Shown here piece after piece: positions 21,838 to 55,992 of a DNA stretch of 64,000 nucleotides. The stretch's first letter is position 1. Every line of letters starts with the position of its first letter. A model generated the notes under the pieces. That model saw only the letters and a list, made by a program, of their open reading frames with translations. It had not been told where the DNA came from and made no database searches. A program made the position numbers and the translations under genes. Source of the stretch: Variovorax sp. ZS18.2.2 (GTDB lineage: Bacteria > Pseudomonadota > Gammaproteobacteria > Burkholderiales > Burkholderiaceae_C). The stretch covers positions 186,001 through 250,000 of the forward strand of contig NZ_JANLNM010000007.1 in NCBI RefSeq assembly GCF_024701975.1, written 5' to 3'.

Positions 21838-23238
21838 TCAGTGCTGCGTGGCGGGCATGGCGCCGCCGACCAGCCCCGAATGCCGCGCCGCCGCCGCATC
21901 GACGTCGCCGGGCGCGTCCAGCAACGGCCCCTGCAGGAACGCCGCCAGCACATCGTTGCTCGCGGCCTGGCTGCGGGCCGGGCCGCGCGATCCGCCGATC
22001 AGTACGGTGATGGCAAAACGCGCCGGTGCCGACAGGTATAGCGGCACGTCGGTGAAGCTGTAGTGATTGGCCCCGGCGATCTGGTAGCGGTATCCGCCGG
22101 CGCGCAAGTGGTGCACGAGCGCGAGGTTGCCTTGCAGGTAGTTCTGCGAATGCCGGGTCTCGCGGTGGTCGCTTTCCAGCAGCAGGAACGGCACCGGCAT
22201 CGGGTCGGTGGCCGCGCGGCCGTACAGGGTGCCGTCGAGGTTGGCGACGGCGCGGATGCGCGCATCGCCCATGGCCGCCTCGACCGCGCTGGCGCCGCCG
22301 AAGGAATGGCCGATCGCGGCGATGCGCTGCGGATCGAGCCGCGGCGACAGGCGCGCACCGAACGCATCCGGCCGGCCAACCCGATCGGCGACGTAGCGCA
22401 GGTCCGCCGCCCGCACGGCCTGCTGTGCGCTCATGTAGTGCGTGCGGTCAGGGTCGTCGGGCAGGAAGCGCTCGATGGGTGTCGCCAGGCGGCCATCGGC
22501 CAGTTCCACGACCGGGGCTTCGCGGGGATGGTCCAGCGCGAGCACGACGAAACCACGGCTCGCCAGATCAGCCAGCAGCCCCGAATAGAACGCCCGCGAC
22601 GCGCCATAGCCCGGCGAGAACAGCACCACCGGCCAGCGCGCGCGTTGCGTGGCCACCGGCGCGTCGATGCGGGCATGCGTGTCGATGCGGTCGTAGCGCT
22701 GCATCACCAGCCCGGGGATCAGCGAGACCCAGGACGGCAGGCGCCCAAGGCCGTCGATGTAGCGCACCCGCGCGCCTTCACCGGGCTCTGCCGGATACCA
22801 GGCCTGCACCACGACGTTGCGGTGGTCGTGCGGGTCGTCGGTCGCGGGCTCGTCGCGGTCGGGGTCGATCCACCGGAACACCTGGCTGCCGACCGCGTAG
22901 GGGCCGCTCGGCGCGGGCAGTTCCGGCACCGGCAAGAAACTCCACGCGAGCAACGCCCCCATGGCGAGCCCCGCCACGCCGAAGCGCCCCAGCCCTGCGA
23001 GCACGCCTTGCGGCGGCGGCCGGCTCCGCCGCCAGGCCAGCACCATCAGCCCCGCGAGCAATGCGTAGATGGCCGCGTACTGCCAATGGAAACCCTCGCG
23101 CCAGACCTGCACGAAGCAGGCGACCAGCAGCATCGCCCCCACGGCGGCGATGGCGCGCGGGCCGACCCGCCTCGTCGCCGCCGCGACGAGGGCCAGGGCG
23201 ACCGCGATCAGGACGATCGCGCCATCCAGCATCGACAT
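21838..23238 (-). CDS. Membrane-anchored alpha/beta hydrolase (PAF acetylhydrolase-like)
   Basis: The 466-residue protein has three or four N-terminal membrane helices (roughly residues 5-100) and a hydrolase domain. The nucleophile elbow GHSFGG is at about residues 310-315, in the context RIAAIGHSFGGASAVEAAMG. The preceding VVLFSPGYGASRAFYSGLLA supplies the oxyanion strand. A late ANHYSFTD provides a candidate catalytic His. This resembles platelet-activating factor acetylhydrolase-like esterases (PF03403). It starts 7 bases after the prolyl-hydroxylase-like oxygenase gene, and is the last gene of the peptide locus. Possible roles are removal of an acyl or ester group from the product, or self-protection; none is proven. 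Confidence 0.78.
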   Translation of the reverse strand: MSMLDGAIVLIAVALALVAAATRRVGPRAIAAVGAMLLVACFVQVWREGFHWQYAAIYALLAGLMVLAWRRSRPPPQGVLAGLGRFGVAGLAMGALLAWSFLPVPELPAPSGPYAVGSQVFRWIDPDRDEPATDDPHDHRNVVVQAWYPAEPGEGARVRYIDGLGRLPSWVSLIPGLVMQRYDRIDTHARIDAPVATQRARWPVVLFSPGYGASRAFYSGLLADLASRGFVVLALDHPREAPVVELADGRLATPIERFLPDDPDRTHYMSAQQAVRAADLRYVADRVGRPDAFGARLSPRLDPQRIAAIGHSFGGASAVEAAMGDARIRAVANLDGTLYGRAATDPMPVPFLLLESDHRETRHSQNYLQGNLALVHHLRAGGYRYQIAGANHYSFTDVPLYLSAPARFAITVLIGGSRGPARSQAASNDVLAAFLQGPLLDAPGDVDAAAARHSGLVGGAMPATQH

Positions 23239-23245
23239 CGCCCGC

Positions 23246-24421
23246 TCAGCCGCCGTACCGGGCCAGCAGGCCCAGCTTCTCGTTCAGCGCGGCCTGGAAC
23301 TGGTCGCGCTGCGAGGGCACCCACATCGGCGGATCGAACGTGGCGACGATGCGCTGGCTCTCGATGCGGATCGTGCCGGCCAGCGGTTCGCGCACGGCGA
23401 AGCTGTCGCCCTGCACGTCCACCTGAAAACCCAGCGCCTCGCCTTCCTTCAGCTGCGCCTTGAGGGTTTCCCGCAACCTGTCCGGGCGCCCGGCGTGCGC
23501 AATGGCAAGCTCGATCGGCCGCAGGTCCGGCAGCGGCAGCAGCACCGCGGCGATGACCTTCGACGGCCCGCCCGCATCCGGAAAGCGCAGCCTTGCAGCG
23601 GCATCGAGCACCAGCGCGCGGGCCGCGGCGACCTCGTCGTCGGCCGCGTGGCCGCTCCGGGCGGTGACGAAGTTGTCGGTCAGCACATCGACCGACGCCA
23701 CGCTGCCGTCCGCGGCCACCGCGAGGCGGAAGCTCATCACGCCCTGCACCTCCTTGAAGGGGCGCACCGGTTCGGCAAGGGCGTGATGCAACGCCAGCAC
23801 GACCTTGCGTGCGGCCGCCGCGTCGAGCGCGCCCGTCACCACCGGCGAGGTGGCGCGCAGATGGCCGACCAGCGCGATGCGTGCCTCCAGCGGGTCCATG
23901 CTGCCCTCGATGGTCTGCGTGCCGTGGACGATGCGGTCGTCGAACAGCAGCAGCTGGTTGAACTCGGCCGGCACCAGTTCGTACAGCACCTCACCCTGCA
24001 CGTGGTGCTTCTTGTAGCTCGGCACGCCGTCGCGCATCAGCAGGGTTTCGCCGCCGGAGAACTTGCGCGTCTGCCAGCGCGTGAGCGAATAGACGAAGCC
24101 CCAGGTGCCGTTCTGGAAGTCGCTGTGCAGGCCCAGGGTGCAGCCGTTGACCATGAGATGGAAGTTCGGCGCGCCGGTCGGAAGCATCCCGAGGTGGTCA
24201 ATGCACCACTGCTTCAGGTGCCGGGTGAAGCGCCCCCACAGCGCCTCGGGAAAGAGCTGCTGCGGCACCGTGCGCAGGTACGTGTACATCTGCGGCTCGC
24301 AGAAGTACTGCCACTGCACGGTCTGCTGGTAGGCACTCCTGACCTTGCCGTCGTAGGCCGTGCGCAGGGCTTCGGCCTCGGGGAAGAAGTCGCTCGCGAT
24401 GTGCTGGCGCTTGATGCTCAT
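23246..24421 (-). CDS. Prolyl-hydroxylase-like Fe(II)/2-oxoglutarate oxygenase with TonB/AgmX-like C-terminus
   Basis: The 391-residue protein has a jelly-roll oxygenase in its N-terminal half: iron ligands His99 and Asp101 in LGLHSDFQNGTWGFVYSLTR, His166 in DDRIVHGTQT, and Arg181 as the likely 2-oxoglutarate contact. Residues about 215-290 (MSFRLAVAADGSVASVDVLT and AAARLRFPDAGGPSKVIAAV) look like the small TonB/AgmX C-terminal fold. The combination is unusual. The ATG at 24421 begins the conserved part. It lies downstream of two SyrP-type oxygenases, separated by a repeat-rich gap of 313 bases, and is followed closely by the membrane hydrolase. Hydroxylation of a residue of the peptide, possibly proline, is inference. 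Confidence 0.75.
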   Translation of the reverse strand: MSIKRQHIASDFFPEAEALRTAYDGKVRSAYQQTVQWQYFCEPQMYTYLRTVPQQLFPEALWGRFTRHLKQWCIDHLGMLPTGAPNFHLMVNGCTLGLHSDFQNGTWGFVYSLTRWQTRKFSGGETLLMRDGVPSYKKHHVQGEVLYELVPAEFNQLLLFDDRIVHGTQTIEGSMDPLEARIALVGHLRATSPVVTGALDAAAARKVVLALHHALAEPVRPFKEVQGVMSFRLAVAADGSVASVDVLTDNFVTARSGHAADDEVAAARALVLDAAARLRFPDAGGPSKVIAAVLLPLPDLRPIELAIAHAGRPDRLRETLKAQLKEGEALGFQVDVQGDSFAVREPLAGTIRIESQRIVATFDPPMWVPSQRDQFQAALNEKLGLLARYGG

Positions 24422-24450
24422 TGGGCAGGTTCCGTCTTCGGATGGCCGGG

Positions 24451-24568
24451 TCTTGCTCCTTCCCCTTCCGGGGGAAGGTTGGGATGGGGGCACGCGGCCT
24501 CGAACACCGCGCGGCGATGAAGGCCGCTTGCCCCCACCCCGGCCCTCCCCCGGAAGGGGAGGGAGAAA
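24451..24568. repeat. Palindromic intergenic repeat, copy 1
   Basis: A ~118-base element with long imperfect inverted arms: the left arm contains CTTCCCCTTCCGGGGGAAGG, and the right arm contains CCTCCCCCGGAAGGGGAGGG as its near-complement. The unpaired centre carries unique sequence. The same arms recur in copy 2, 151 bases further on, in the same orientation. Elements like this behave as mobile palindromes (MITE- or REP-like) and fold into strong RNA hairpins. The whole 24422-24734 gap holds nothing else recognisable. Confidence 0.85.
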
Positions 24569-24601
24569 TACAAAGACTCCGAACACGACGCGCGGTCCTT
24601 G

Positions 24602-24725
24602 TCTTGCTCCTTCCCCTTCCGGGGGAAGGCTGGGATGGGGGCTCGCGGCGCTTGCAATGCGGCAGCGCCTGATCGACGGGCGCTTGCCCCCACCCCGGCC
24701 CTCCCCCGGAAGGGGAGGGAGAAAG
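24602..24725. repeat. Palindromic intergenic repeat, copy 2
   Basis: Second copy, with near-identical ends and a different centre. It finishes 9 bases before the end of the SyrP-like oxygenase gene (stop at 24735). As it lies inside the transcript between two oxygenase genes, its hairpin could reduce readthrough or protect the upstream mRNA from 3' decay. Confidence 0.85.
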
Positions 24726-24734
24726 AGAGGAGGC

Positions 24735-25670
24735 TCATGCCGGCTCTCCAGTGGCGACCGCGGCGTGCTCGCGCATATCCCCCAGCGCAACGCGCACCTG
24801 CCGGTTGCCGCTGTACGGCAGGCGCCCGTGGGCCATCAGCAGGTTGTTCACCAGCAGCACGTCGTGGGCCTGGGTGGGAATGTGGATCGCGCACTCGGTC
24901 AGCACGCGGTCGATGGTGCGCACCCATGCGGCCGGAATCGGGCTGCCGTCGCCGAAGAACACCGTGCGCGGGTACTGGTCGCGCCGGAAGTGCTTGCTCA
25001 GCATGGCATCGACCTGCGTCGGCAGCGCGTCGGGATGGTGCAGCAGGATCTGGTTGAACCAGGCCTCGGAGCCGCGCTCGGGAATCCGCAGCAGCGCGTG
25101 GGTGCGGTAGGACACGGTGAGGTCGTTCTCCGAAGCCGCATCGATCTCGTGCCCGGTCGGCGCGATCTTCTCGCGCAGTTCCTGCAGGCTCGCGACCTGG
25201 AAGAACTGCTCCCACGAAGCATCCAGGCCGCGGATGAAGCGGCGCCGGTAGACCAGGCCCAGCTCGCGGAAGCGTTCGAGCATCTCCGCGGGCAGGCGTT
25301 CGACTACCTGGCGTCCGTCCGACAGGGTCCACTCGCCGCCTTCCGAGGCCGGCTCCAGGCAGAAGAACAACTGGCGAGAGGGCCAGGTCTGGGTGTGCGA
25401 GGCCTCGTTGTGAAAGCGGATCTCCAGGTGCTTGGGATACGGCGTCGCGAAGTACACGTTGTCGCTCGCGCTGGCCAGCGGCAGGTCGCCGTAGTGCCGG
25501 TAGAGCGCGTCGCAGGCCGAGGCGGCCGAGGCCTCGAAGCCGTCGAGGCCGCCGACGTCGAAATCGCGGAACAGGACATGGCCGTCGGTCCACAGCGCTT
25601 CGTCGATGCGGTCGCGGTGCTGGCGGATCCAGGGCGCGAGCGGTTCGCGCGAGGGGGAGGTGATGTGCAT
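24735..25670 (-). CDS. TauD/SyrP-like Fe(II)/2-oxoglutarate oxygenase (second)
   Basis: This 311-residue enzyme is a TauD-fold oxygenase of the clavaminate-synthase/SyrP group. Iron ligands are His87 and Glu89 (FHNEAS, an HxE variant of HxD) and His281 in LMAHGRLPY, with Arg290 or Arg293 as the 2-oxoglutarate contact. SyrP-type enzymes hydroxylate amino acids bound to peptide-synthetase carrier domains. It follows the other SyrP-like gene by 44 bases. The two share the same plan, but differ in the insert after the HxE motif, so they probably act on different residues or positions. Confidence 0.85.
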   Translation of the reverse strand: MHITSPSREPLAPWIRQHRDRIDEALWTDGHVLFRDFDVGGLDGFEASAASACDALYRHYGDLPLASASDNVYFATPYPKHLEIRFHNEASHTQTWPSRQLFFCLEPASEGGEWTLSDGRQVVERLPAEMLERFRELGLVYRRRFIRGLDASWEQFFQVASLQELREKIAPTGHEIDAASENDLTVSYRTHALLRIPERGSEAWFNQILLHHPDALPTQVDAMLSKHFRRDQYPRTVFFGDGSPIPAAWVRTIDRVLTECAIHIPTQAHDVLLVNNLLMAHGRLPYSGNRQVRVALGDMREHAAVATGEPA

Positions 25671-25714
25671 GGGCTCGGCTCGCTGTGAAGATGAAAAAAC
25701 TGAGAAGAGGCCGC

Positions 25715-26673
25715 TCAGGACATGGCCACGAGAATCCGCCGCGGCCCGTCGAAAGGCAGCCGCCCGTGCGCCGCAAGAACGTTGTCGACCACCAGCAGAT
25801 CGCCCTGCCGCCAACGGAAGGCGCGCCGCTGCGCACGCAGCACCTCGCGCACGCTGGCCAGCGTGGCGTTGTCGATGCGGCCGCCGTCGCCGTAGTACGC
25901 CGCCATCGGCAGGCCGGCCTCGATGCGCGCATCGACGTTGCTCGCCATCGGCGTGTTGGAGGCGTGGAACAGGTGCACCTGGTTGAACCAGACCCGCTCG
26001 CCGGTCAGCGGATGCACGCGCGTGGGCGGCCGCCGCTCGTGGATGCGCAGGCCGCCGCCGGGCTGCCATTCGCAGCCGATGTCCATCTCGCGGCAATGGG
26101 CCTCGACCTGCGCGCGGTCGTCGGTCTCGAAGGCCTTGCTCCAGGCGTTGTAGCGCGCGTTCGCGGGCGCGAGGTTGCGCACGTACAGGAGCTGGCGGCG
26201 CTCGAATGCCTCGACGATGGCGGCCGGCATGGCCTGCAGGATGCGGCGCGAATCGGCCAGCGGCGTCTCGCCGCCCACCTCGGGTTCGGTCGCGCAGAAG
26301 AAATACAGCCGCCCGGGCCAGCGCACGCTGTACGACATCTCGTTGTGCAGCGGAATCTCCAGTTGCTTCGGGTACTCGGTCGAGGTGTAGATGCCCTCGG
26401 CCACCTGGCTGCGCGGCGACGTGCCACCGGCATAGCCGCGCAGCTGCGGCGTCATCGCTGCGACCACGCGGCGGAAGTCTTCGGCCTCGCGCAGCGGAAA
26501 GCCGCGCAGCAGCAGCGCACCGGCGCGCAGCAGCGCGGGCTCCAGACGCGGCATCGCCTGTTCGACCCAGCGCCCGGCATCCGTCACGCCGGGGTCGGCG
26601 TGGACGCAATGCGGCAAGCCGCCGGCGATGCCGTCGCCGGCTTCGCGGGGGTCCATGGCGGTTGCGGTCTCGC

Positions 26674-26677
<4 letters not shown>
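25715..26677 (-). CDS. TauD/SyrP-like Fe(II)/2-oxoglutarate oxygenase (first)
   Basis: The 320-residue enzyme has the SyrP-type signature IPLHNEMSYSVRWPG with iron ligands His111 and Glu113, and the distal His304 in VLAAHGRLPFDGPRR. Nearby Arg313/314 should bind 2-oxoglutarate. The HNEMSY form is typical of oxygenases that hydroxylate synthetase-bound amino acids in peptide siderophores and lipopeptides. The start ATG at 26677 overlaps the synthetase stop as ATGA; an ATG six bases further upstream is possible. Direct coupling to the last synthetase gene supports a role in tailoring the peptide. Confidence 0.87.
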
Positions 26678-38530
<11,853 letters not shown>

Positions 38531-38534
<4 letters not shown>

Positions 38535-41500: not shown

Positions 41501-44500
41501 CGGCTCGCCGTCGATGACGACGAAGCGCCCGCGCAGCGACTCGTGGCGCGCAGCGATCCGGTCCAGCGCGTTCTGCAGCGCGATGCGATCCAGGGTTCCG
41601 CGCAAGCGCAGCGCGGCAGGCAGGTGATAGGCCGCGCCGGCCTGTGCGTCGATCCGGGTCACGTACCACAGGCGCTGTTGCGCGTGCGACAGCAGAAGCG
41701 GTGCGCTGCGATCCGCCGGCACGATCGGATCGATAGGATCGATCGCGCAGGGCATGAGTATGGGTATGGCCCGCGCCATCTCGGCGGCCAGTTCCGCGAG
41801 CCGCGGCTGTGCGAACACCGTCGTCAGCGCCAGCTCCACGCCAAAGCGCTGGCGCAGTTGCGAGAGCATCCGCACCGCCAGCAGCGAATGCCCGCCCAGC
41901 TCGAAGAAGCCGTCGTCGCGGCCGATGCGCGCGATGCCGAGCAGCGACGACCAGATCTGCGCCAGCGCCTGCTCGTGCGCACCCCGTGGCGCCTGGTAGC
42001 TGCGTTGCGCGCGGGCCCCGTCGTCCGGTGCGGGCAGCGCGGCGCGGTCGAGCTTGCCGTTGGCGTTGAGCGGCAGCGCGTCCAGCCGCACGAAGGCGGC
42101 CGGCAGCATGTGCCCGGGCAGGTGTTCGGCCAGGCGCGCGCGCCACTGCGCCACGTCGGGTGGCGAGCGATCCGGGTCCGTGACCACATAGGCCAGCAGG
42201 CGCTTGTCCCCGTCTGGCCCCTGCGCGGCAATCACCACGGCTTCGCGGATGCCGTCCAGGCGCATCAGCGCTGCCTCGACCTCGCCCGGTTCGATGCGGA
42301 AACCGCGGATCTTGACCTGCTGGTCGTCGCGGCCGAGGAACTCGATCGAGCCATCGCCGCGCCAGCGGCCGAGGTCGCCGCTGCGGTACATGCACGGTGT
42401 CGGCGCGTGCGCCGGCGGCGCTGCGAACGGATCGGCCACGAAGCGCTGCGCGGTCAACCCGGGCCGATGCAGATAGCCGCGCGCCACGCCGGCGCCGCCG
42501 ATCCATATCTCGCCGACGACACCGACCGGCACCGGTTCGCCATGCGCATCGAGCAGATGGACGCGCGCGTTGGGCACCGGATGGCCGATGCTCAGCGGCG
42601 AGTCCCCGGCGCGGCAACGTGCGACGGTGGCGTTGATCGTGGTCTCGGTCGGGCCGTAGGCATTGGCCAGCGCGGGGCGATGGCCCCTGCGCTGCCACCA
42701 TGCATCGAGCGCGGCGGCGCCGACCGCATCGCCGCCGATCACGATCTGGCGCAGCGACGGTGGAAACACCGCATCGGGCGCATGGGCCAGTCGCTGCCAG
42801 AACAGCGTCGGCAGGTTGGCGACGGTGAGCCGGTGCGCGGCGCACAGTTCGCACCAGCGCCGGGGTTCCGCGAGCCATTCGTCGGTGCGCAGCACCAGGG
42901 TCGCGCCATGGCTGAGCGCGCCGAAGATCTCCTCGCCTGCGACGTCGAAGCTCAGGCCGGAGAACTGCAGCACGCGGTCTTCGGCACCGAAGCCGTAGAG
43001 CGATTGCAGTGCCGCGATCTGATGGGAAAGCTGCCGGTGCTCGACCATCACGCCCTTGGGCGTGCCGGTGGAACCGGAGGTGTAGATCACATAGGCCAGG
43101 TGCGAACCGTCGTCGGCCAGGTCCTTTCGATCGGGCGCATGCGTGGGCGCGTCCGCCCATGGCGCGGGTTCGTCGAGCGCGATCGTCGTGCAGCACGAGG
43201 GCGGGTGCAGGCGCGAGTGCAGACCGGTTTGAGTGAGCAACACCGCCGGTGCGCAGTCCTCCAGCTGCCAGGCCAGCCGACGGTCCGGATGGGACGGATC
43301 GAGCGGCACATACGCGGCGCCGGCCTTGAGCGTGGCCAGCACCGCGACGATCAGGTCGAACCCGCGCGGCAGGCACAGCGCGACGCGCCCCTCGGCGCCG
43401 ACGCCGAGGCCGCGCAGGTGGTGGGCGAGCCGGTTGGCGCGCCGGTCGAGTTCGAGGTAGCTGAGCCGTTCGCCATCGTGTTCCAGCGCGATGGCCTGCG
43501 GCCGCAGCGCGGCCTGGTGTTCGAAAGCGGCGTGCGCGAAAGCGTGTGCGGGAAGTGCCGACTTGCCTTCGGCGAATGCATGCAGCAGCCGGTCACGCGC
43601 GTCGGCGTCGAGCAACGCGATGCGATCGACCGGCCGGCGCTCGTCGGCGGCCATGCCGCGCAGCATCGCGACCAGGCTGCGCCAGTGGCGGCGCACCGTG
43701 GCCTCGTCGAACAGGGCGGTGGCGTAGTTGAGCTTGCCGGCGATGCGGTCGCCCTCTTCCTGCAGGTCCAGCGCCAGGTCGAACTGCGCGCCGGCCGGCA
43801 GGCTCTCGACCCGTTCGACGGCAAGGCCGGCCAGTTCCAGCGCCACCGCGGGCGTGTTGTGCCAGGCCAGCATCAGCTGGAACACCGGATGGTGGGCCAT
43901 CGAACGCGGCGGGTTCAGCGCCTCGACCAGGCGTTCGAAGGGCACGTCCTCGCGCGCCTGCGCCTGCAACGCGGTGCGGCGCACCTGGGCCAGCAGGTCG
44001 GCCACTGTCGGGGTGCCGTCCAGCGTGATCTTCAGCGCCTGGGTGTTGATGAAGCAGCCGATCAACGGCTCGATCTCGACCCGGCCACGGCCGGCGTGCG
44101 AACTGCCGATCACCACCTGCGACTGGCCGCTGTAGCGCGCCACCACGGCGGCCCAGGCGGCCAGCACGACCATGTAGAGGGTTGCGCCGTGGCGCTGGCC
44201 GAGTGCGCGCAGGGCCTGCGTGGTGCCGGCGTCGAGGTCGACCGCGAAGCTCGCGCCGCGGTAGTCCTGCAACGCTGGCCGCGGCCGGTCGCAAGGCAGC
44301 TCGGTCAATGCCGGCGCGCCCTGCAATTGCGCGACCCACGCCTGCAGCCGGGCCTGTGCAGGCTCGCCTTGCAGGTGCTCGTGCAGCCACGCCGCATGGT
44401 CGGCGTACTGAATCGGCAGCGAAGGCAGAGAGGGCGCTCGCCCATCGCGCCGTGCGCTGTAGGCGATGGCGAACTCGCGCATCAGCACGCTCAGCGACCA

Positions 44501-47500
44501 GCCGTCGGAGACGATGTGGTGCATCACCACCAGCAGCACGTGATCTTCGTCGGCCACGCGCAGCAGCAGGCCGCGGATCGGTGGACCCGCCGCGAGATCG
44601 AAGGGCTCGGCCGCAGCCTCGCGGCACAGCGCTTCGATCCGCGCCGCATCCGAACCGATCGCATCCTGCTCGCGCAGATCGAAACCGTGCGGGGCATCGA
44701 TGTGCTGCCAGGGCTGGCCGTCGATCGCAACGAAGCGCGTGCGCAAGCTTTCGTGCCGGGCCACGACCTGGTCCAGCGCGGCGCGCAAGGCCACGCGGTC
44801 GAGCGCGCCGCGCAGGCGCAAGGCGCCAGGGATGTGGTACGCAACGCTGGCCTGCGCATCGACACCCGCGATGAACCACAGGCGCTGCTGTGCCGGCGAC
44901 AACGGCAGCGGACGGCTGCGATCGGCGGGTGCGATCGCCGCCATTTCGCTGCGGCCGGCGGCGGCCACGCTTGGGGCCAGTGCGGCCAGGCGCGGGTGCG
45001 CGAACAGGGTGGCCAGCGCGAGTTCGGCGTCGAAGTGTTCGCGGATACGGGAGATCAATCGGATGGCCAGCAAGGAGTGGCCGCCGAGTTGGAAGAAGTC
45101 GTCGTTGCGGCCGACCTGCTGGACGCCCAGCAGTTGAGACCAGATTTCGGCGAGGGCTTGCTCGATCTCGCCTTGCGGTGCTGCGTAGGCACGCTGACCG
45201 AACGCATTACCCTCGGGCGCTGGCAGCGCCTTGCGGTCGAGCTTGCCGTTCGGTGTCAGCGGCAACGCATCCAGCACCACGTAGGCCACCGGGACCATGT
45301 AGTCCGGCAAGTGCTGGCTCAGCTGTGCGCGCAGTTGTGCGGCATCGGCATTCCCTGTCAGGTACGCGACCAAGCGCTTGTCGCCGGGCTGGTCTTCGCG
45401 TGCGAGCACTGCGGCCTCGCGCACGCCGTCCAGGCGAGCCAGCTGCGCTTCGATCTCCCCCAGCTCGATGCGGTAGCCGCGGATCTTCACTTGATGGTCG
45501 TTGCGGCCCAGGTACTCGATGCTGCCGTCTGCGCACCAGCGGCCCAGGTCGCCGCTTCGGTACATGCGTGCACCGTCGAACGGGTTGGTGAGGAAACGCG
45601 CTTCGGTGAGGTCGGGCTGCGCCAGATACCCACGCGCAACCTGGACTCCACCCAGGTACAGCTCGCCAACGACGCCCACCGGCACCGGAGTGCGCTGCGC
45701 GTCCAGCACGTAAATGCGGCTGTTGCCTATGGGTTGGCCGATTGGAGGCAGGTCTTCCCACCCTTCGGGCGCACCACTCAGAGTGTGCGCGCTGACCACA
45801 TGGGTTTCGGTCGGCCCGTAGTGGTTGTGCAGCCGCGCCTGCGGGTGCCTCTCGAACATGCGACGGATCGCCGGCGTGATCCTGAGTTGCTCTCCTGCCG
45901 TGATGACATCCCGCAGCATCGCCAACGGTTCACTGCGCTGTGACCAGAGTTCGCTCAGGTTGTTCAGCGCGATGTAAGGCAGGAACATGCGCTCGATCGA
46001 CTCTTCGGCCAGCCATTCGGCCAGAGCCGGCAGGTCTTGACGCAGCGCTTCGTGCAGCAGCACCAAGGTGCCACCGCCAGCGAGCGTGCTGAAGATCTCC
46101 TGGAAGGCGACGTCGAAACCCAATGCAGCGAACTGCAGCGTGCGCGCGGGCTCGGGCAACTGCTCGCGCTGCCAGGCCAGCAGGTTGACCAGGCCACGGT
46201 GCGGCATCGCCACGCCCTTGGGCACACCGGTCGAGCCGGAGGTGTAGATCACATAGGCCAAGTGCTCGGGGCGCAGGCCCAGCTCGTTCGCGTGCAGATT
46301 GGCCGTGGATGCGTTGGCCCATGCCGGCTCGGCTTCGTCCAGCAGGACCGAGGCTGCATTGCCCAGCGCCAGGCACTCGATCAGTCGGTGTTGACTCAGC
46401 ACCACCACCGGCTCGCTGTCACGCAGCATCTGCGCCAGACGCTCATCGGGGTACGTCGGATCGAGTGGCACGCAGGCACCGCCGGCCTTGAGCGTGGCCA
46501 GGATCGCCACCACCATCGCCAGGCTGCGTTCGACGCAGATCGCCACGCGGTCGTCCGGCCCGACCCCCAGCCGGCACAGGTGCCGCGCCAATCGGTTCGC
46601 CTGCTCATTGAGGTCGCGGTAGCTCAGCTGTGCGCCATCGAGTTCCAGCGCAATGCGATCCGGATGCGCCGCCGCCTGCTGCTCGAAGGCTTCATGCACC
46701 AAGGCCGGTGCGGTGTATTCGCAGCTCGTGTCGTTGAAGCCGTGGAGCACGCGCTCGCGTTCCTCGGCAGGCAGCACATCGAGCGCCAGCAGCGGCGTAT
46801 CGGGTGCTTCTTCCAAAGCCTGCGCAAAGGCTTGCAACGCCTGCTGCACGAACCCCGCGACTCGCCCGGCCGACACCGCGGCATCCACCTGCACCGTCAA
46901 CTCGAAATCGCTCCCGTCGTCGTCGACGTACAGGCCGAAGGGATAGTTGGTGCGGTCGCGCACCTCGAGCAATCGCACGCCATCCAGCACCTGCGCATGC
47001 GCGACCCGGCTGTGCCGGTAGTTGAGCAATGCAGAGAACAACGGCACCTGCGCCGGCATCGCGCTGCAACGCTGGGCCAGCACCAGCGGCGCATGTTCGT
47101 GGCGCAGCAGTCCGCTCCATGCCGCATGGGTCTCGCGCAGGCCCTGCACCGCCCCGCGCCCGGCCAGCGCAATCCGCATCGGCAGCGTATTGATGAACAT
47201 GCCGACCGCGCGATCGGAGCCAGTGCCGCCGTGCATGCGGCCGAACAGCACCGTGCCGAAGACGACATCGTCGCGCCCGCTGCACAGGGCCAGCACCCGG
47301 GCCCAGGCCAGATGGAACAGGCTGGCCGCGCCCACGCCGTGGCGCATGGCCAGCGCGCGCAGCCGCGCCGAAAGCGCCTGCGGCAGCGTGACGCGCGCCT
47401 GCTCGATCTGCGAGCCGTCGCCCTGCACGTCGAGCAGACCGAAGGGCGCGGTCGGCTCATCGACATCGCCGAGCATCGCGCCGAAGAACGCCTCGTGCTC

Positions 47501-50500
47501 CGCCGCGCTCACGCCATGGCGCGCCTCTGCGACGAAGTTGCGGAACGGCACCGGCGGCGGCAACCCGGCGGCGGAGCCGCGCTCGATCGCATCGATCTCC
47601 TCCACCAGCCGCTCCAGGGTGGTGTGGTCCATCACGAGGTGGTGATAGGACAGCAGCAGCAGCCAGCGCCCGCTGGCCTCGTCGCGCGCGGCAACGCCAT
47701 GCAGCATCGGCGCGCGCCGTACGTCGATGCGCAGGCCGCGCACTTGCGGATGCGCGCGCAGGCGCCCGGCCGCGGTGCCCGTACCCGGCGCCAACGTCAG
47801 CGTGTCCACAGCGAAGCCGGCACGCCGCCACACGACCTGCACGGGCTCGCTCAGGTTCTCCCAATGGACCGCGGTGCGCAGGATGTCGTGGCGTTCGATC
47901 ACCTGCGACAGGGCCGCGATGAAACGGTCCATGCGCGGCCTGCTGTCGAACTCGAGCAGCGTCGGCAGCACATAGGTGTCGGTGTCGCGCTCCAGCAGGT
48001 GGTGGAACAGGATGCCCTGCTGCAACGGCGCGAGCGGATAGATGTCCTGGATGTTGGCCGCGCCGCCGGGCGTGGCCTGGACGATCCGCGCGATCGCGGC
48101 TGCGTCGAGATCGACCAGCGTCAGCATCGCGGGTTCGATCGCAGTGCAGCCGGGGGGAATCAGAGGGGGCGGCACGGCCACCGCATCGTCGTGCCGGATC
48201 GTCGCGGCCAGGGCCGCCAGCTTCGGATGCGTGAACAGCGAGCGGATGTCGGCCGACCAACCGCGTCGGCCCAGTTGGTCGAGCAGCCGGATGGCCAACA
48301 AGGAGTGGCCGCCGAGTTGGAAGAAGTCGTCGTTGCGGCCGACCCGCTCAACGCCCAGCAGTTGAGACCAGATTTCGGCGAGGGCCTGCTCGATTTCGCC
48401 TTGCGGTGCTGCGTAGGCACCCTGACCGAACGCATCTCCCTCGGGCGCGGGCAGCGCCTTGCGGTCGAGCTTGCCGTTCGGTGTCAGCGGCAATGCATCC
48501 AGCACCACGTAGGCCACCGGGACCATGTAGTCCGGCAAGTGCTGGCCCAGCTGTGCGCGCAGTTGCGCGGCATCGGCTTGACCGACGAGATACGCGACCA
48601 AGCGCTTGTCGCCGGGCTGGTCTTCGCGTGCGAGCACTGCGGCCTCGCGCACGCCGTCCACACGCACCAACTGCGCTTCGATCTCACCCAGCTCGATGCG
48701 GTAGCCGCGGATCTTCACTTGATGGTCGTTGCGTCCAACGTATTCGATGCTGCCGTCGGCACGCCAGCGGCCCAGGTCACCGCTTCGGTACATGCGTGCA
48801 CCGTCGAACGGATTGGTGAGGAAACGCGCTTCGGTGAGGTCGGGCTGCGCCAGATAACCCCGCGCAACCTGGACTCCACCCAGGTACAACTCGCCGACAA
48901 CGCCAACCGGCACCGGCTGGTGCTGCGCGTCCAGCACGTAAATGCGGCTGTTGCCGATCGGCCGGCCAATCGACGGCAGGTCTTCCCATTGCTCCGGCTG
49001 CCCGCTCAAGGTGTGCGCGCTGACCACGTGCGTTTCGGTCGGCCCGTAGTGGTTGTGCAGCCGCGCCTGAGGGTGCCTCTCGAACATGCGACGGATCGCC
49101 GGCGTGATCCTGAGTTGCTCTCCTGCCGTGATGACATCCCGCAGCATCAGCAGCGGCGCGCTGCGCTGCGACCAGAGTTCGCTCAGGTTGTTCAGCGCGA
49201 TGTACGGCAGGAACATGCGCTCGATCGACTCTTCGGCCAGCCATTCGGCCAGAGCCGGCAGGTCTTGACGCAGCGCTTCGTGCAGCAGCACCAAGGTGCC
49301 ACCGCCAGCGAGCGTGCTGAAGATCTCCTGGAAGGCGACGTCGAAACCCAATGCAGCGAACTGCAGCGTGCGCGCGGGCTCGGGCAACTGCTCGCGCTGC
49401 CAGGCCAGCAGGTTGACCAGGCCACGGTGCGGCATCGCCACGCCCTTGGGCACACCGGTCGAGCCGGAGGTGTAGATCACGTAGGCCAGGTGCTCGGGGC
49501 GCAGGCCCAGTTCGTTCGCGTGCAGATTGGCCATGGATGCGTTGGCCCACGCGGGCTCGGCATCGTCCAGCAGGACTGAAGTCGCATCGAGTCGCGCTGC
49601 CAATCCGCGCTGGCTCAGCACCACCACCGGCTCGCTGTCGCGCAGCATCTGCGCCAGACGCTCATCGGGGTACGTCGGATCGAGCGGCACACAGGCACCA
49701 CCGGCCTTGAGCGTGGCCAGGATCGCCACCCCCATCGCAAGACTGCGCTCGGCGCAGATCGCCACGCGGTCGTCCGGGCCCACCCCCAGCCGGCACAGGT
49801 GCCGCGCCAATCGGTTCGCCTGCTCGTTGAGGTCGCGGTAGCTCAGCTGTGCGCCATCGAGTTCCAACGCGATGCGATCCGGATGCGCCGCCGCCTGCTG
49901 CTCGAAGGCTTCGTGCACCAAGGCCGGTGCGGTGTATTCGCAGCTCGTGTCGTTGAAGCCGTGGAGCACGCGCTCGCGTTCCTCGGCAGGCAGCACATCG
50001 AGCGCCAGCAGCGGCGTATCGGGCGCTTCTTCCAAAGCCTGCGCAAAGGCTTGCAACGCCTGCTGCATGAACCCCGCGACGCGCCCGGCCGACACCGAAG
50101 CATGGATCTCGGCAGTCAGCACGAAATCCCCACCCAGATCGTCGACGTACAGGCTGAACGGGTAATTGGTGAGATCGCGGCCGCCAAGGTAGTGCATGCC
50201 CGCGGCGATCTCGGTGTCGCCGAAACCCTCGCTGCGGCTGTGGCGGTAGTTGAGCAGCGCCGAGAACATCGGTGTGTTCGGCGCCAGGCTGCTGCAACGC
50301 TGGGCCAGCGTCAGCGAGGCATGCTCATGGCGCAGCAGCCCGCTCAGCGCCACGTGCGTCTCGCGCAGTCCCTCTGCCACCCCGCGCCCGCCCAGCGCGA
50401 TGCGCACCGGCAGCGTGTTGATGAACATGCCCATCGCGCGGTCGATGCCCGCGCCGCCCTGCATGCGGCCGAACAGCACCGTGCCGAAGACGACATCGTC

Positions 50501-53500
50501 GCGCCCGCTGCACAGGGCCAGCACCCGGGCCCAGGCCAGATGGAACAGGCTGGCCGCGCCCACGCCATGGCGCATGGCCAGCGCGCGCAGCCGCGCCGAC
50601 AACGCCGGCGGCAAGGTCAGGCGTGCCTGCTCGACCTGCGAGCCGTCGCCCTGCACGTCGAGCAAACCGAAGGGCGCGGTCGGCTCATCGACATCGCCGA
50701 GCATCGCGCCAAAGAACGCCTCGTGCTCCGCCGCGCTCACGCCCTGGCGCGAGCGCGCAACGAATTCGCGGAACGGCACCGGTGGCGGCAGGGCCTCGCC
50801 GCGCCCCTGCAGCAGCGCCACCACCTCGTGCAGGATCAGCTCGGTGGTGGTGTGGTCCAGCGTCAGGTGATGGTGCAGCAGCTGCAGCAGCCAGCGCCCC
50901 GACACCGGGTCGAACGCCGCATGGGCCTGCAGCATCGGTGCGCGGCGCAGGTCCAGGCGCACCTGCCGCGCATCGGCACGGGCCTGCAACTGCGCCTGCA
51001 CGTCGCCACCGGCCGGGTCGACGTGCAGTTCCTGCAGCATCAGCGCAGCGTGGCGCCAGACCACCTGCACCGGCGCGTCCAGCCCTTCCCACTGCACGGC
51101 CGTGCGCAGGATGTCGTGGCGCGCGATCACCTGCTGCAACGCGGCCATGAAGCGGTCGAGGCGTTGGCGGTCGTCGAAGCGCAGCAGCGCCGGCAACACG
51201 TAGGCATCGCCCTCGCCCTGCAACAGGTGGTGGAACAGGATGCCTTCCTGCAGCGGCGCGAGCGGATAGATGTCCTGCACGTTGCGCGCGCCGCCGGAAA
51301 CGCCATCGACGATCCGATCGATCTGCGCCTGGCTCAGTGGCACGAGCGGCAGCATCTGCGGCGTGATGCGCTCGCACCGTGCGGGGATCGCATTGGCCGG
51401 CACCGGCGCCGCGCCCTGCCCGGCCTGCCCGGCCTGTCCGGCCTGTGTCACGCGCGCCGCGAGCGCGCTCAGCGTCGGCTCGGCGAACAGGTGGCGGATC
51501 TCCAGCTCCAGGCCTTCGCGCTGCATGCGCTCGACCAGTTGCACGGCGAGGATCGAATGGCCGCCGAGCTCGAAGAAGTTGTCGTGGCGGCCGACCCGTT
51601 CGACGCCGAGCACGTCGGCCCACAGCCGGGCCAGCGCCGCTTCGGTCGCGCCTTGTGCCGGCGCGTGGTCGCGGTGCTGCCACGCGCGAGGGTCGGGCGC
51701 CGGCAGTGCCCGGCGATCGAGCTTGCCGTTCGGCGTGAGCGGCAGCGCATCCAGCACGACGAAGGCGGCCGGGACCATGTGGTCCGGCAGGTGCTCGCGC
51801 AAGGCGGCGCGCGCAGCGGATGGATCGAACGCGGCCCCGGCAACGAGGTAGGCGACCAGGCGCGTGTCGCCGGGCATGTCCTCGCGCGCGATGGCGACCG
51901 CGTCGGCGACACCATCGCGCCGCATCAACTGCGCCTCGATCTCGCCCAGTTCGATGCGGAAGCCGCGGACCTTGACCTGCTGGTCGTTGCGGCCGATGTA
52001 TGCCAGGCTGCCATCGGCGAGGTAACGGCCCAGGTCGCCGGTGCGGTACATGCGCGCGCCCGGCACGCCGCCGAACGGATCGGGCACGAAGCGCTGCGCA
52101 TCCAGTTCGGGCCGCCGCAGATAACCGCGCGCGACGCCGGCGCCGCCGACGTACATCTCGCCCGTGCAGCCGACCGGCAGCGGCCGGCCCTCCGGGTCGA
52201 GCACGTACACGCTCAGGTCGGGAATGCGCACGCCGATCGGGCTCGCCCCGGTGCGCCCTGCGTCGGCCGGTTCCAGCACGCGGCAAGTGACGTGCACCGT
52301 GGTCTCGGTGATGCCGTACATGTTGACGAGGCGCGTGGCCGCGTTGCGCTCCTCCGCATACCAGGGCCCGAGCGCTGCCATGTCCAGCGCCTCGCCGCCG
52401 AGGACGACATGGCGCAGCGCATGCCGCGGCAGCTCCGGCGAGCCGGCCTGGCAGGCGGCAGCGGCGAACTGGCGGAACGCGCCCGGCGTCTGGTTGAGCA
52501 CGGTCACGCCCTGCTCGCACACCAGGCGATGGAACTCCGCCGGCGCGCGGCTGACCGCGTGCGGCACCACGACCAGGCGCCCGCCGTGGATCAGCGCGCC
52601 CCACAGTTCCCACACCGAGAAATCGAAAGCGAAGGAATGGAACAGGGTCCACACGTCGCCCCGGCCGAAATCGAACCATGCCCGGGTCGCATCGAACAGG
52701 CGGCTGACCTGCGCGTGTTCGACCATCACGCCCTTGGGCAGCCCGGTCGAGCCGGAGGTGTAGATCACGTAGGCCAGGTGCGATGGCGCGAGCCCTTCGA
52801 CATGCGGGTTGCCGGCGGGCGCATCGGCCCACGGTGCCTGCTGGTCGAGGTTCACCCGCCTGCATGACGCTGGCGTCTGCAGGCGATCGAGCAAGGCAAT
52901 GTCGCCGAGCAACACCACCGGCGCGCTGTCGCGCAGCGTGTGCGCCAGGCGCTCGTCCGGATACACCGGGTCCAGCGGCACGTAGGCGCCGCCGGCCTTG
53001 AGCGTGGCCAGGATCGCGACCACCATGCCGAGCCCGCGCGCAAGGCCGATCGCGACCAGATCGTCCGGACCGACGCCGAGCGCTCGCAGGTGATGGGCCA
53101 GCTGGTTGGCGCGCCGGTTGAGTTCGCCATAGCTCAGCCGTTGGCCGTCGAACTGCACCGCGACCGCATCGGGTTGTTGCCTGGCCTGCCGCTCGAACAA
53201 CGCGTGAATCAACGACGGCGCACCGGTGTCGAGCCGCGGCCGGTTGAAGCCGTGCACGACGAGTTCGCGCTCGGCCGCGTCCATCAGCGGCAGGTCGCGC
53301 ACGCGCGTGTCCGGCGCATCGAACGCGGCGCGGCACAGGCCCTGCAGCCGCCGCAGATGCGCGGCCATCTCCTCTGCGGAGAACAGCGCCGGGTCGTGGT
53401 TGAACTCGATGTGCACCGGGCGCCCGTGCTCGTAGTCGCGCACGTACACCGCCAGCGGCTGGCGCTCATGGCCGTTGTGCAGCGGAAGCACCGAGGTGCG

Positions 53501-54613
53501 GATGCCTTCGAACCCCAGGTCGCCCTGGAAGGACTCGACCGACAGCGACAGGTCGAACAGCCCGCGGCGCTCGCCCACCCCGGCCAGCAGTTCGCGGTGC
53601 AGGTCGGCCAGCGGATAGCGCTGGTGGCGGTAGCACTGCTTGAGCTCGCCAGCGACGCGGCGCAGCGTCTGCGCAAAAGTCTCCTCGGGATCGACCGCGA
53701 TGCCGACGGGAATCGCGCCGGAGAACATGCCGGGCATGCGCCTTTGCGCCGCGCCGGTGCGGTTGTGCACCGGCATGCCGATCACCACTTCGTCGTCTTC
53801 GCGTCCACTCCAGCGCGCGAAGTACACCGCCAGCAACGCCGCGAGGAAATGCGTGCTCGATGCGCCCTCGGCCGCGGCCACTTCGCCAAGGCGGTCGTGG
53901 TCGGCGCGGTCCAGCAGCCAGACGGCCTGCGCGACCTTGCGGCCGATGCGGCCGCGCTGCGCGGCCTCGAACAGCGGTGCGGCCAGGCGCGAATGGCGAT
54001 GCAGCCAGAAGGCGCGATCGGCGGCGTAGCGCGGCGAGGCCAGGTACTCGGCGTCCTTGCGGATGAAGTCGGCGTAGTCGGCGTAATCGGCGTCCTCATG
54101 AACATCGCCGCCGACCGCCGGCTCGCCGCGCCCGAGCCGGTTGTAGGCGTCGGCCACGGCATTGCCGATCAGCGACACCGACCAGCCGTCCGCGACCAGG
54201 TGATGGAAGCACCCGAGCCAGTAGCCGCGCCCGGGCGCGACCTGCAGCCATTGCATGCGCCACAGCCGCTGGCCGTACAGCGCGAACGGGGCGAGGAAGG
54301 CGGCGCGCATGTGCGCCCAGGCGCTCGCCTCCGGATCGGCCTGGCTGCTGAAATCGAAGCGCTGCAGCGGTGCGTCCACCGTCTCGGCGAAGCGTTGCAT
54401 CACCCCGCTGGCGCCACGCTCGAGCACGGTGCGCAGCGCCTGGTGGCGCCCGGCGACCGCACGGATCGCGGCCTCCAGCCGGTCGGGGTCGGTCGGCCCC
54501 TCCAGGCGGGTTGCGACGCCGATGTTGTAGCAGGGCAGGTCCGGCGCGAGCGACTGGTCGAGCCAGACCGCCTGCTGGGGCGAGCTCAGGGGATGGAGGA
54601 GTTCGCTGCTCAT
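38531..54613 (-). CDS. Nonribosomal peptide synthetase, modules 1-5
   Basis: This 5360-residue protein (about 570 kDa) contains five modules: C1-A1-T, C2-A2-T, C3-A3-T, C4-A4-T, C5-A5-T. C1 sits at the very N-terminus (HHLVADGWS at 137-145), the position of a starter domain that attaches a fatty acid to residue 1. C2 is dual E/C type with an exact HH[I/L]xxxxGD motif (HHLLQGEGD); C3 is similar but reads HHLLERDTD. C4 and C5 are LCL type (HHIVSDGWS). Core adenylation motifs lie near residues 618, 1714, 2789, 3844, 4921; carriers near 1019, 2103, 3178, 4242, 5318. Pocket codes: A1 DFWNVGMVHK (Thr type), A2 and A3 DVQFIAHVVK (Pro type), A4 DVENVGAINK (unassigned), A5 DMKELGMVDK (Glx-like). The start ATG at 54613 overlaps the exporter stop as ATGA; a longer frame to 55696 overlaps the exporter and was rejected. 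Confidence 0.96.
45060..47480 (-). repeat. Duplicated C-A-T segment, copy in module 3
   Basis: The carrier, adenylation and 3' part of the condensation domain of module 3 repeat those of module 2 at an offset of 3228 bases (3219 after one 9-base gap). Stretches of more than 200 bases around 45973-46250 are identical or nearly so to 49201-49480, while the flanking condensation-domain parts are less similar. Pockets A2 and A3 are the same. This points to recent duplication or ongoing gene conversion. Confidence 0.9.
48288..50700 (-). repeat. Duplicated C-A-T segment, copy in module 2
   Basis: This is the matching segment of module 2. Similarity to module 3 is highest in the adenylation domain and falls in the upstream condensation domain (C2 versus C3), where the epimerisation motif also differs. 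Such long near-identical tandem tracts are prone to recombination and to assembly error, so the module count should be confirmed. Confidence 0.9.
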
Positions 54614-55992
54614 GGCCCGCTGCCGTCCGGCACCAGCGTTTCGAGCCGGCGCAGGCGCCGGTGGCCGAGCGCGAGAACGGTCAGCACCAGGCCGATCGCG
54701 CCGCTCACGAAGAACAGGAAGCCGATGCCCCGGCCCGGCCCGGTGCCGAACCATGCGCCGACCGTGGCGGCCAGGGCGCCGCCCGGGCGCAGCGCCGGCT
54801 CCAGCACCGCGTCGGCGAGCCAGCCGCCGGCCAGCAGCACCACGCACATCACCCCCATGTTGGACGCGGTGATCAGCGCGAACACGCTTCCCTGCCGGCC
54901 CATCGGCGCCTTGCGCATCCACAGCGCATGCGAGCACGCCACCGAGGTGCTGCCGCAGAAGAGGCACACGAACGCCGCCGCGCACCACCAGGCCGGCGTG
55001 GTCGCGCAGCCGGCGGCCAGCACCGCCGCGCACTGCACCGCGTCGCAGGCCAGCACCCATCGCATCAGCCCGTGGCGAATGAAGGCGGTGGCGACCAGGA
55101 CCGAACCGAGCAGGCCACCGGCGATGCCGACCGACATCACCAGGCCCAGCACGTCGCTCGAATGCGTGGACAGCACCAGCGGCGTGACCAGCGTCGTTGC
55201 CAGCACCAGCAGGCACTGCACCAGCGCGCCGTAGCCCAGCAAGGCGGCCATCAGCGGCTGCTCGCGCAGGTACGCCAGCGCGCCGGCAAGGCTGGCCCAC
55301 GGCGATGTGCGGACGGGCGGGTCGCCGGCGCGCGGCCCGCCGCGCACGTCGCTGCCGGCCCGGGTCAGGGCCGCGAACACCAGCGCGGCGCCGGCCAGCA
55401 GCAGGCACAGCTGCGTCGCCATGACGCCCTGCAGGCCCGTCCGCGCCATCAGGAAGCCGGCCGCGGCGGGCGCGCCGACCTGCACCAGCGCGCGCGAAAT
55501 GCCGGTCAGCCCGCCGACCTGCGCGAAGCGGTCCCTGGGCACGAAGCGGCTGACCGCCACCCGGATCGCCGGCCGCCGCAGCGCGCCGACCGCCGCCGCG
55601 ACCGCGGCGTAGGCATACAGCGCGCCGATGCCGAGCCGGCCGGACATCAAGGCCAGCACGATCGCGAACGTGCCGACGATGGCGGCGACATCGCACGACA
55701 GCACCACCCAGCGCCGGTCATGCCGATCGGCCAGCGCGCCGGCGAACGGCGTGACCAGCATCGCCGCCAGCGCGGCGGCCAGCACCGAGAACGAATAGTC
55801 CTGCGCGGAGCCGGTGCGGGAGAAGATCCACACGCCCACCGCGAAGCTGACCAGCGTGGTGCCGAGATCGAAGGCCGTCTCGCTCAGCCACAGCAGCGCG
55901 AACGTCGATCGCGCACGCAACAGAGGTTGCAGCGGGGTGACCGGTTCGTCGCGGGTCGAAGTCGCTGCGGCTTCCACGGTCGCTTCCTGCAT
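54610..55992 (-). CDS. MFS exporter (EntS-like), probable peptide efflux
   Basis: The 460-residue protein has about twelve membrane helices and lacks any other domain. The loop GALADRHDRRWVVLSCDVAA after helix 2 is the MFS signature region, and the closest general type I recognise is the EntS-like group that exports siderophores and other small peptides. The ATG at 55992 gives a short cytoplasmic leader; an in-frame TTG at 56022 and GTG at 56016 are alternatives. The stop overlaps the ATG of the five-module synthetase as ATGA. It is the first gene of the peptide operon, so it probably exports the product and may confer self-resistance. Confidence 0.88.
   Translation of the reverse strand: MQEATVEAAATSTRDEPVTPLQPLLRARSTFALLWLSETAFDLGTTLVSFAVGVWIFSRTGSAQDYSFSVLAAALAAMLVTPFAGALADRHDRRWVVLSCDVAAIVGTFAIVLALMSGRLGIGALYAYAAVAAAVGALRRPAIRVAVSRFVPRDRFAQVGGLTGISRALVQVGAPAAAGFLMARTGLQGVMATQLCLLLAGAALVFAALTRAGSDVRGGPRAGDPPVRTSPWASLAGALAYLREQPLMAALLGYGALVQCLLVLATTLVTPLVLSTHSSDVLGLVMSVGIAGGLLGSVLVATAFIRHGLMRWVLACDAVQCAAVLAAGCATTPAWWCAAAFVCLFCGSTSVACSHALWMRKAPMGRQGSVFALITASNMGVMCVVLLAGGWLADAVLEPALRPGGALAATVGAWFGTGPGRGIGFLFFVSGAIGLVLTVLALGHRRLRRLETLVPDGSGP

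What the first reader, a model, noticed from the sequence alone, without database searches (positions are those of the whole stretch)
21838..55992. A 34-kb nonribosomal peptide locus whose predicted product is not one I recognise
One strand carries an exporter, eight synthetase modules in three proteins, tandem thioesterases, three oxygenases of two types and a membrane hydrolase. The combination of starter condensation domain, dual E/C domains and tandem thioesterases is the plan of cyclic lipopeptides, while the SyrP-type oxygenases are more often found in peptide siderophores. Proline-type pockets occur at three of eight positions. I know of no characterised compound with the order Thr-Pro-Pro-X-Glx-Ser-Pro-Glx.
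Basis: partly seen in the sequence, partly recalled or inferred. Interest (0 to 1): 0.75.

Follow-up and report, generated by a model that had tools for sequence, protein, structure and literature searches.

The report
Tripropeptin antibiotic gene cluster in Variovorax
This stretch of DNA is a Variovorax copy of the known gene set for tripropeptin, a cyclic lipopeptide antibiotic, so the predicted peptide is not new; the one loose end is a conserved third hydroxylase-like gene that the papers we read do not mention.

Summary
In detail: one minus-strand gene run (55992-21838) carries an MFS exporter, eight NRPS modules in three proteins (5+1+2), tandem thioesterases, two TauD oxygenases, a third oxygenase-like protein (Ox3) and a PAF-AH-like hydrolase. 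The claim that the product is unrecognised does not hold. All eight genes are collinear with a locus in a genome whose main contig has exactly the N50 published for Lysobacter sp. BMK333-48F3, the tripropeptin producer (63-85% identity; pocket codes equal in 5 of 8 modules, one I/V swap in 3). Ho et al. 2021 already proposed Variovorax strains, V. guangxiensis included, as makers of tripropeptin-like compounds.

What remains is Ox3 (24421-23246). It follows the second TauD gene in 15 of 15 clusters seen and turned up nowhere else in the genome sets searched with it, yet it matches no Pfam family or PDB sequence and is not in the published empA-E model. I propose that the two TauD enzymes hydroxylate Asp5 and Asp8 and that Ox3 makes 3-hydroxyproline-7. 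This is testable and not shown.

The parts
54610..55992 (-). MFS-family exporter, first gene of the run
   Evidence: Pfam MFS_1 E 6.7e-20; an orthologue lies upstream of NRPS1 in 9 of 9 related clusters whose upstream end was fetched, and was not covered in 2 more
38531..54613 (-). NRPS1, modules 1-5: starter C + Thr; C(E/C class) Pro; C(E/C class) Pro; C Arg; C Asp. A-domain core motifs near 52762, 49474, 46246, 43084, 39853
   Evidence: C domains; codes DFWNVGMVHK, DVQFIAHVVK, DVQFIAHVVK, DVENVGAINK, DMKELGMVDK; C classes; 76% identical to G1278
34989..38534 (-). NRPS2, module 6: C(E/C class) Ser (A core motif near 36428)
   Evidence: C, A, T domains; code DVWHISLVDK; 74% identical to G1278
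26674..34992 (-). NRPS3, modules 7-8 and tandem thioesterases: C(E/C class) Pro; C Asp; TE-TE (A core motifs near 32832 and 29625)
   Evidence: codes DVQFVAHVVK and DMKELGMVDK; 81% identical to G1278
25715..26683 (-). TauD1, Fe(II)/2-oxoglutarate oxygenase; proposed beta-hydroxylase of one Asp (tentatively Asp5, EmpB equivalent)
   Evidence: Pfam TauD E 5.1e-38 for the enclosing ORF; 77% identical to G1278
24735..25670 (-). TauD2, Fe(II)/2-oxoglutarate oxygenase; proposed beta-hydroxylase of the other Asp (tentatively Asp8, EmpA equivalent)
   Evidence: Pfam TauD E 8.9e-30 for the enclosing ORF; 32% identical to TauD1; 85% identical to G1278
24450..24726 (.). four alternating copies of a palindromic repeat between TauD2 and Ox3; absent from this gap in 13 of 14 related clusters, present in a shorter form in L025
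23246..24421 (-). Ox3, oxygenase-like protein without a known family; present in every related cluster seen; proposed 3-hydroxylase of Pro7
   Evidence: H99, D101, H166, R181 invariant in 15 of 15 homologues; co-occurrence with TauD2
21838..23238 (-). PAF-acetylhydrolase-like serine hydrolase with hydrophobic N-terminus; accessory, possible depsipeptide esterase
   Evidence: PF03403 E 2.1e-22; 53-64% identity in Lysobacter and Massilia-type clusters; no match beside the three Collimonas clusters

Best explanation
The locus is a tripropeptin biosynthetic gene cluster in a Variovorax species. Shown by sequence: eight modules, three classes of C domain, tandem TE, two TauD oxygenases, Ox3, MFS and hydrolase, collinear with the cluster of the likely tripropeptin producer. 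Inferred: the starter C domain loads a 3-hydroxy fatty acid on Thr; the line builds Thr-Pro-Pro-Arg-Asp-Ser-Pro-Asp, with D residues at positions 1, 2, 5 and 6 made by dual E/C domains in modules 2, 3, 6 and 7; TauD1 and TauD2 hydroxylate the two Asp residues and a third enzyme, most likely Ox3, hydroxylates Pro7; the TE domains close a lactone between Asp8 and the fatty-acid 3-OH, as described for plusbacin; the MFS protein exports the product. The compound would bind undecaprenyl pyrophosphate and stop cell-wall synthesis in Gram-positive bacteria, as reported for tripropeptin C.
For: [quoted passage not shown] Window codes read Thr-Pro-Pro-?-?-Ser-Pro-?; the two unread codes recur at the Arg4, Asp5 and Asp8 places of three Massilia-type clusters of empedopeptin order, for which Ho et al. 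predict Arg4-Asp5...Asp8 and give MS/MS ions and a matching formula in strain YMA4. Genome G1278 has a contig of 5,224,492 bp, equal to the N50 published for Lysobacter sp. BMK333-48F3; its cluster is collinear over 8 of 8 genes: MFS 81, NRPS1 76, NRPS2 74, NRPS3 81, TauD1 77, TauD2 85, Ox3 83, hydrolase 63%. Codes: 5 of 8 equal, 3 of 8 with one I/V swap. Each of the eight window C domains groups with the same-numbered domains of G1278 and G1269. Collimonas G501 has the same order at 63-77% identity; Song et al. report that a trpA mutant of C. fungivorans Ter331 lost inhibition of S. aureus. V. guangxiensis, named by Ho et al., holds the same 8 genes at 76-87% identity (G417).
Against: No product was measured from this strain. 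The fatty acid cannot be read from sequence. A 313-bp gap with four repeat copies separates TauD2 from Ox3 here, which could change hydroxylation.
Confidence: 0.94

Rival explanations
1. The locus makes a new octapeptide with Glu/Gln at positions 5 and 8 and an unknown residue at 4, as the first reader read the pockets.
For: DMKELGMVDK is not one of the Asp codes I recall and looks Glu-like.
Against: The same code stands at the two Asp places in clusters of empedopeptin order, where Ho et al. report Asp, and at both Asp places in G1278.
Confidence: 0.03
2. A peptide siderophore, since TauD/SyrP-type hydroxylases make beta-hydroxy-Asp used for iron binding.
For: Such hydroxylases are recalled to be common in lipopeptide siderophores; this genome's other NRPS locus (C22) has a TauD match inside a 3019-aa frame.
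Against: The layout matches the tripropeptin/empedopeptin/plusbacin antibiotics gene for gene; no siderophore receptor stands among the eight genes of the run.
Confidence: 0.02
3. A plusbacin- or empedopeptin-type product.
For: Same gene layout and, at positions 3-8, codes equal or with conservative swaps.
Against: Positions 1-2 are Thr-Pro here, Pro-Ser in the three Massilia-type clusters and Thr-Ser in Lysobacter G1269.
Confidence: 0.02
4. About the third oxygenase only (not an alternative to the cluster's identity): Ox3 is not the Pro7 hydroxylase; the two TauD enzymes do all three hydroxylations and Ox3 has another role.
For: Ho et al. speculated that the two dioxygenases act together; Ox3 has no significant family match; plusbacin is recalled to carry more than one hydroxyproline although G1269 has the same three genes.
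Against: Ox3 sits beside TauD2 in 15 of 15 clusters; both published mutants lost Pro7 hydroxylation although products of each could keep one OH-Asp; the mutants were plasmid insertions, which may be polar on a downstream Ox3.
Confidence: 0.4

Closest known systems
   Same: 8 of 8 genes, their order, module order; codes equal or with one I/V swap
   Different: 63-85% protein identity; no repeat between TauD2 and Ox3; distant host genus
trpABC of Collimonas fungivorans (G501; its identity with Ter331 is recalled from the 5,186,898-bp contig length)
   Same: MFS, NRPS1-3, TauD1, TauD2, Ox3 and the same residue order
   Different: No adjacent hydrolase gene found; 63-77% identity
Empedopeptin emp cluster type (Massilia sp. 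YMA4, PMC8069584; here genus-g323 genomes G1173, G1243, G1235)
   Same: 5+1+2 modules, two TauD, tandem TE, C/E calls at modules 2, 3, 6, 7; Ox3 and hydrolase present in the three genomes
   Different: Residues 1-2 are Pro-Ser instead of Thr-Pro. None of the three genomes was shown to be YMA4
Plusbacin-type cluster (Lysobacter G1269; candidate cluster of L. firmicutimachus in PMC11451712)
   Same: Same 8 genes
   Different: Residue-2 code reads Ser instead of Pro. That G1269 is L. firmicutimachus is inferred from order and size

Membership tests
Tripropeptin biosynthetic cluster | Eight modules in residue order Thr-Pro-Pro-Arg-Asp-Ser-Pro-Asp | tested here: met
   Codes compared with G1278, G501, G417 and others
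Tripropeptin biosynthetic cluster | Starter C domain and dual E/C domains at modules 2, 3, 6, 7 | tested here: met
   C-domain tree, three classes with equal-numbered grouping. No external reference C domains were in the tree; the class names are recalled and follow PMC8069584. The dual-type motif was found in 3 of 4
Tripropeptin biosynthetic cluster | Tandem TE at the end of the last NRPS | tested here: met
   Two PF00975 stretches
Tripropeptin biosynthetic cluster | Two TauD oxygenases directly downstream of the NRPS genes | tested here: met
Tripropeptin biosynthetic cluster | Whole-cluster orthology to a characterised producer | tested here: met
Tripropeptin biosynthetic cluster | The compound itself in culture | not testable with these tools
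   Expected masses
2-oxoglutarate/Fe(II) oxygenases (for Ox3) | HxD...H metal triad and a downstream Arg | tested here: met
   Invariant in 15 of 15
2-oxoglutarate/Fe(II) oxygenases (for Ox3) | Significant profile or fold match to a known oxygenase | tested here: inconclusive
   No Pfam/NCBIfam/PDB sequence match. hhalign to prolyl-4-hydroxylase-like proteins E 0.33-0.57; the best one lines up H, D, H and R, but the unrelated hydrolase alignment scored E 0.06-0.09 and TauD 0.03, so it does not discriminate. Models of low confidence (pLDDT 53.6 and 40.7); Foldseek no hit at E <= 0.001
Empedopeptin cluster | Pro-Ser at positions 1-2 | tested here: not met
   Thr-Pro in the window

The most novel reading that the evidence does not exclude
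The tripropeptin/empedopeptin/plusbacin clusters carry a third, unnamed oxygenase family (Ox3), without significant match in Pfam or PDB, that is the prolyl 3-hydroxylase of this antibiotic family. The published two-dioxygenase model would then be incomplete, and the loss of Pro7 hydroxylation in both the empA and the empB insertion mutants would be a polar effect on Ox3.
Probability: 0.5. Interest if true: 0.45.

Novelty: new member of a known kind. Interest (0 to 1): 0.25.

Why it matters
It removes a false lead (a supposedly unknown peptide) and adds a Variovorax copy to a family of lipopeptides reported active against MRSA and VRE. If the Ox3 proposal holds, it names the missing prolyl hydroxylase of the family, an enzyme family without a model in Pfam, testable with one deletion, and it explains an odd published mutant result.

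Tried and rejected
A TauD2 search of 399 genomes of the window's family gave, besides the window's own genome (matched twice, the second at 36%), nine others at 32-36% only; judged more distant TauD enzymes and not followed. Ox3 was not searched in that set. An order-wide draw of 399 genomes gave only G501 beyond the window's own genome. Of the ten loci, six (L020-L025) were cluster relatives; the other four (L026-L029, 27-42% identity) were left aside.

Structure prediction of Ox3 gave no usable model, whole (pLDDT 53.6) or N-terminal domain alone (40.7); the Foldseek list is not used. It holds TonB C-terminal-domain hits with E about 0.1-0.3. hhalign of Ox3 to prolyl-4-hydroxylase-like proteins was not significant and did not beat unrelated alignments (13 of the 30 proteins extracted were used, the other 17 fell outside the length limits). 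A profile search with Ox3 in 160 genomes of the phylum found only the window's own copy; the plasmid collection held none.

Papers. PMC8069584: parts 1, 2, 3 and 5 of 5 plus passages; part 4 was not opened. Figures and supplementary tables were not seen. A search of its held text for 'oxygenase' anywhere gave 8 occurrences, none about a third enzyme. PMC8656377: part 1 of 2. Passages only: PMC4690342, PMC11451712, PMC4154637, PMC12283262, PMC6269750, PMC9581180, PMC13194151, PMC9098870. All others: search listings. That Ox3 is not described in print rests on searches in an open-access library and on those passages; subscription papers were not covered.
Full report
The window lies in a 7.23-Mb genome. 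Its closest cluster relative is G406, whose contig of 359,139 bp equals the V. boronicumulans CC172 contig of L023; the two share flanking genes at 90-99% identity, and the genome search places both in one genus, so the host is a Variovorax.

Anatomy. On the minus strand, in order of transcription: MFS exporter 55992-54610; NRPS1 54613-38531 (5360 aa, five modules); NRPS2 38534-34989 (1181 aa, one module); NRPS3 34992-26674 (2772 aa, two modules and two thioesterase stretches); TauD1 26683-25715; TauD2 25670-24735; Ox3 24421-23246; hydrolase 23238-21838. The first five genes overlap by 4-10 nt; TauD1-TauD2 are 44 nt apart, TauD2-Ox3 313 nt, Ox3-hydrolase 7 nt. GC by codon position is consistent with the minus-strand frames. 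Eight condensation domains and eight adenylation domains are present.

Residues. The pocket codes read Thr (DFWNVGMVHK), Pro, Pro (DVQFIAHVVK), DVENVGAINK, DMKELGMVDK, Ser (DVWHISLVDK), Pro (DVQFVAHVVK), DMKELGMVDK (the tenth letter K is assumed, and single positions that fell into a gap in one alignment were taken from the other). The meaning of known codes is recalled. That is the empedopeptin order of Massilia sp. YMA4, for which Ho et al. report Arg4, Asp5 and Asp8 with MS/MS support (PMC8069584). So the window reads Thr-Pro-Pro-Arg-Asp-Ser-Pro-Asp.

That order is tripropeptin (PMC4154637 Table 2; PMC9581180). Genome G1278 has a contig of 5,224,492 bp, the exact N50 given for Lysobacter sp. 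BMK333-48F3, the tripropeptin producer (PMC8656377). Its cluster holds 8 of 8 genes in the same order at 63-85% identity, with 5 of 8 codes equal and 3 of 8 differing by one I/V swap. A maximum-likelihood tree of 32 C domains from four clusters shows three classes, and each window C domain groups with its same-numbered counterparts in G1278 and G1269. G1269 reads Thr-Ser-Pro-Arg-Asp-Ser-Pro-Asp, which fits the plusbacin candidate of PMC11451712, where a Ser-predicting module stands for Ala. Collimonas G501 and G1013 and Variovorax G406, G415, G417 and G451 have the tripropeptin order. Ho et al. had already proposed Collimonas and Variovorax strains, V. guangxiensis GCA_003952165.1 among them, as tripropeptin-like producers. 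The cluster is therefore a new copy of a known kind.

The third oxygenase. Ox3 has an HxD...H...R pattern invariant in 15 of 15 homologues but no match in Pfam, NCBIfam or PDB, and no usable structure model was obtained. It lies next downstream of TauD2 in 15 of 15 clusters seen: six Variovorax (window included), three Collimonas, three of genus g323, three Lysobacter. Thirteen of these were found with TauD queries, so the presence of Ox3 in them is a test; two (G1269, G1278) were found with Ox3 itself, and there the test is the presence of TauD2, which holds. In the window's genus 6 of 101 genomes have TauD2 (E <= 1e-80) and the same 6 have Ox3. In the draw of 392 genomes of the family of G501, 6 have TauD2 at 75% or more and the same 6 have Ox3; three further genomes had TauD matches of 36-39% only and no Ox3. 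In the genus of G1262, 3 of 20 genomes have Ox3. A profile search of 160 genomes of the phylum added none. These coincidences are not independent events, since such clusters move as blocks. In four Variovorax relatives the Ox3 start overlaps the TauD2 stop by 4 nt, which argues for one transcript and one pathway.

What would Ox3 do? The product has three hydroxylated residues, OH-Asp5, OH-Pro7 and OH-Asp8, and the locus has three oxygenases. Ho et al. found cyclic products with OH-Asp5 and unmodified Pro7 and Asp8 in the empA strain, and products with OH-Asp8 or no hydroxylated residue in the empB strain; m/z 1094.56, seen in both, fits loss of two oxygens (calculated 1094.573), and 1078.57, seen only in the empB strain, loss of three (1078.578). 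So each mutant lost its own Asp hydroxyl and also that of Pro7. The mutants were made by plasmid insertion, and an insertion upstream of Ox3 could silence it. That is my reading; the authors speculated that the two dioxygenases act together, and their text, as far as read, names no third enzyme. Against a pure polar effect: some empB-strain products kept OH-Asp8, so if empA lies downstream of empB the polarity was incomplete, and Pro7 hydroxylation could instead depend on prior Asp hydroxylation. Which TauD is EmpA and which EmpB is inferred from gene lettering only, and the YMA4 sequence itself was not identified among my genomes.

The hydrolase is present in 9 of 11 related clusters and in L021 and L025; it was not found beside G501 or G1013, nor in the 12 kb taken from G1087. 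If G501 is strain Ter331, the cluster is active without it, so it is likely accessory, for example a depsipeptide esterase for self-protection or turnover; this is a guess.

Strain peculiarity. Between TauD2 and Ox3 the window has four alternating copies of a palindromic repeat. None of the 11 related clusters has its core there, nor do L021 and G1087, but L025, a Variovorax MAG, does in a 145-nt gap, so the insertion is shared by two of the six Variovorax clusters. The core matches 47 places in the genome, these four included (27 + 20, against 0 + 0 in the reversed-pattern control). It breaks the overlap seen in four relatives and might lower Ox3 expression, so incompletely hydroxylated tripropeptins are a testable expectation here.

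Noticed in passing
24450-24726; L025:2716-2860: Alternating copies of a palindromic repeat (REP/BIME-like) inserted in the biosynthetic operon; its core matches 47 places in the genome, and a shorter form sits at the same place in L025.
   Followed up: partly
G000:C22:113224-141299 (L001-L005, L019): A second NRPS locus with eight condensation domains and a TauD-type match inside a 3019-aa reading frame, possibly for a beta-hydroxy-Asp siderophore; two more condensation domains lie on C24.
   Followed up: no
58562-58870 (-): A 2OG-FeII_Oxy_3 (prolyl 4-hydroxylase-like) stretch near the cluster; the family is found in 23 of 26 genomes searched, so it is probably not part of it.
   Followed up: no
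L056-L057 (G1235): Empedopeptin-type cluster whose NRPS2 lacks about 280 aa in the middle of the module-6 adenylation domain (residues 606-886 of the window protein have no counterpart); deletion or assembly fault not decided.
   Followed up: partly
L021: The Lysobacter antibioticus HS124 record carries the downstream part of the same cluster: Ser-Pro-Asp codes, TauD1, TauD2, Ox3 and hydrolase.
   Followed up: partly
L026:10004-10912: Streptomyces xylophagus locus with a TauD protein 42% identical to TauD1 between NRPS stretches.
   Followed up: no
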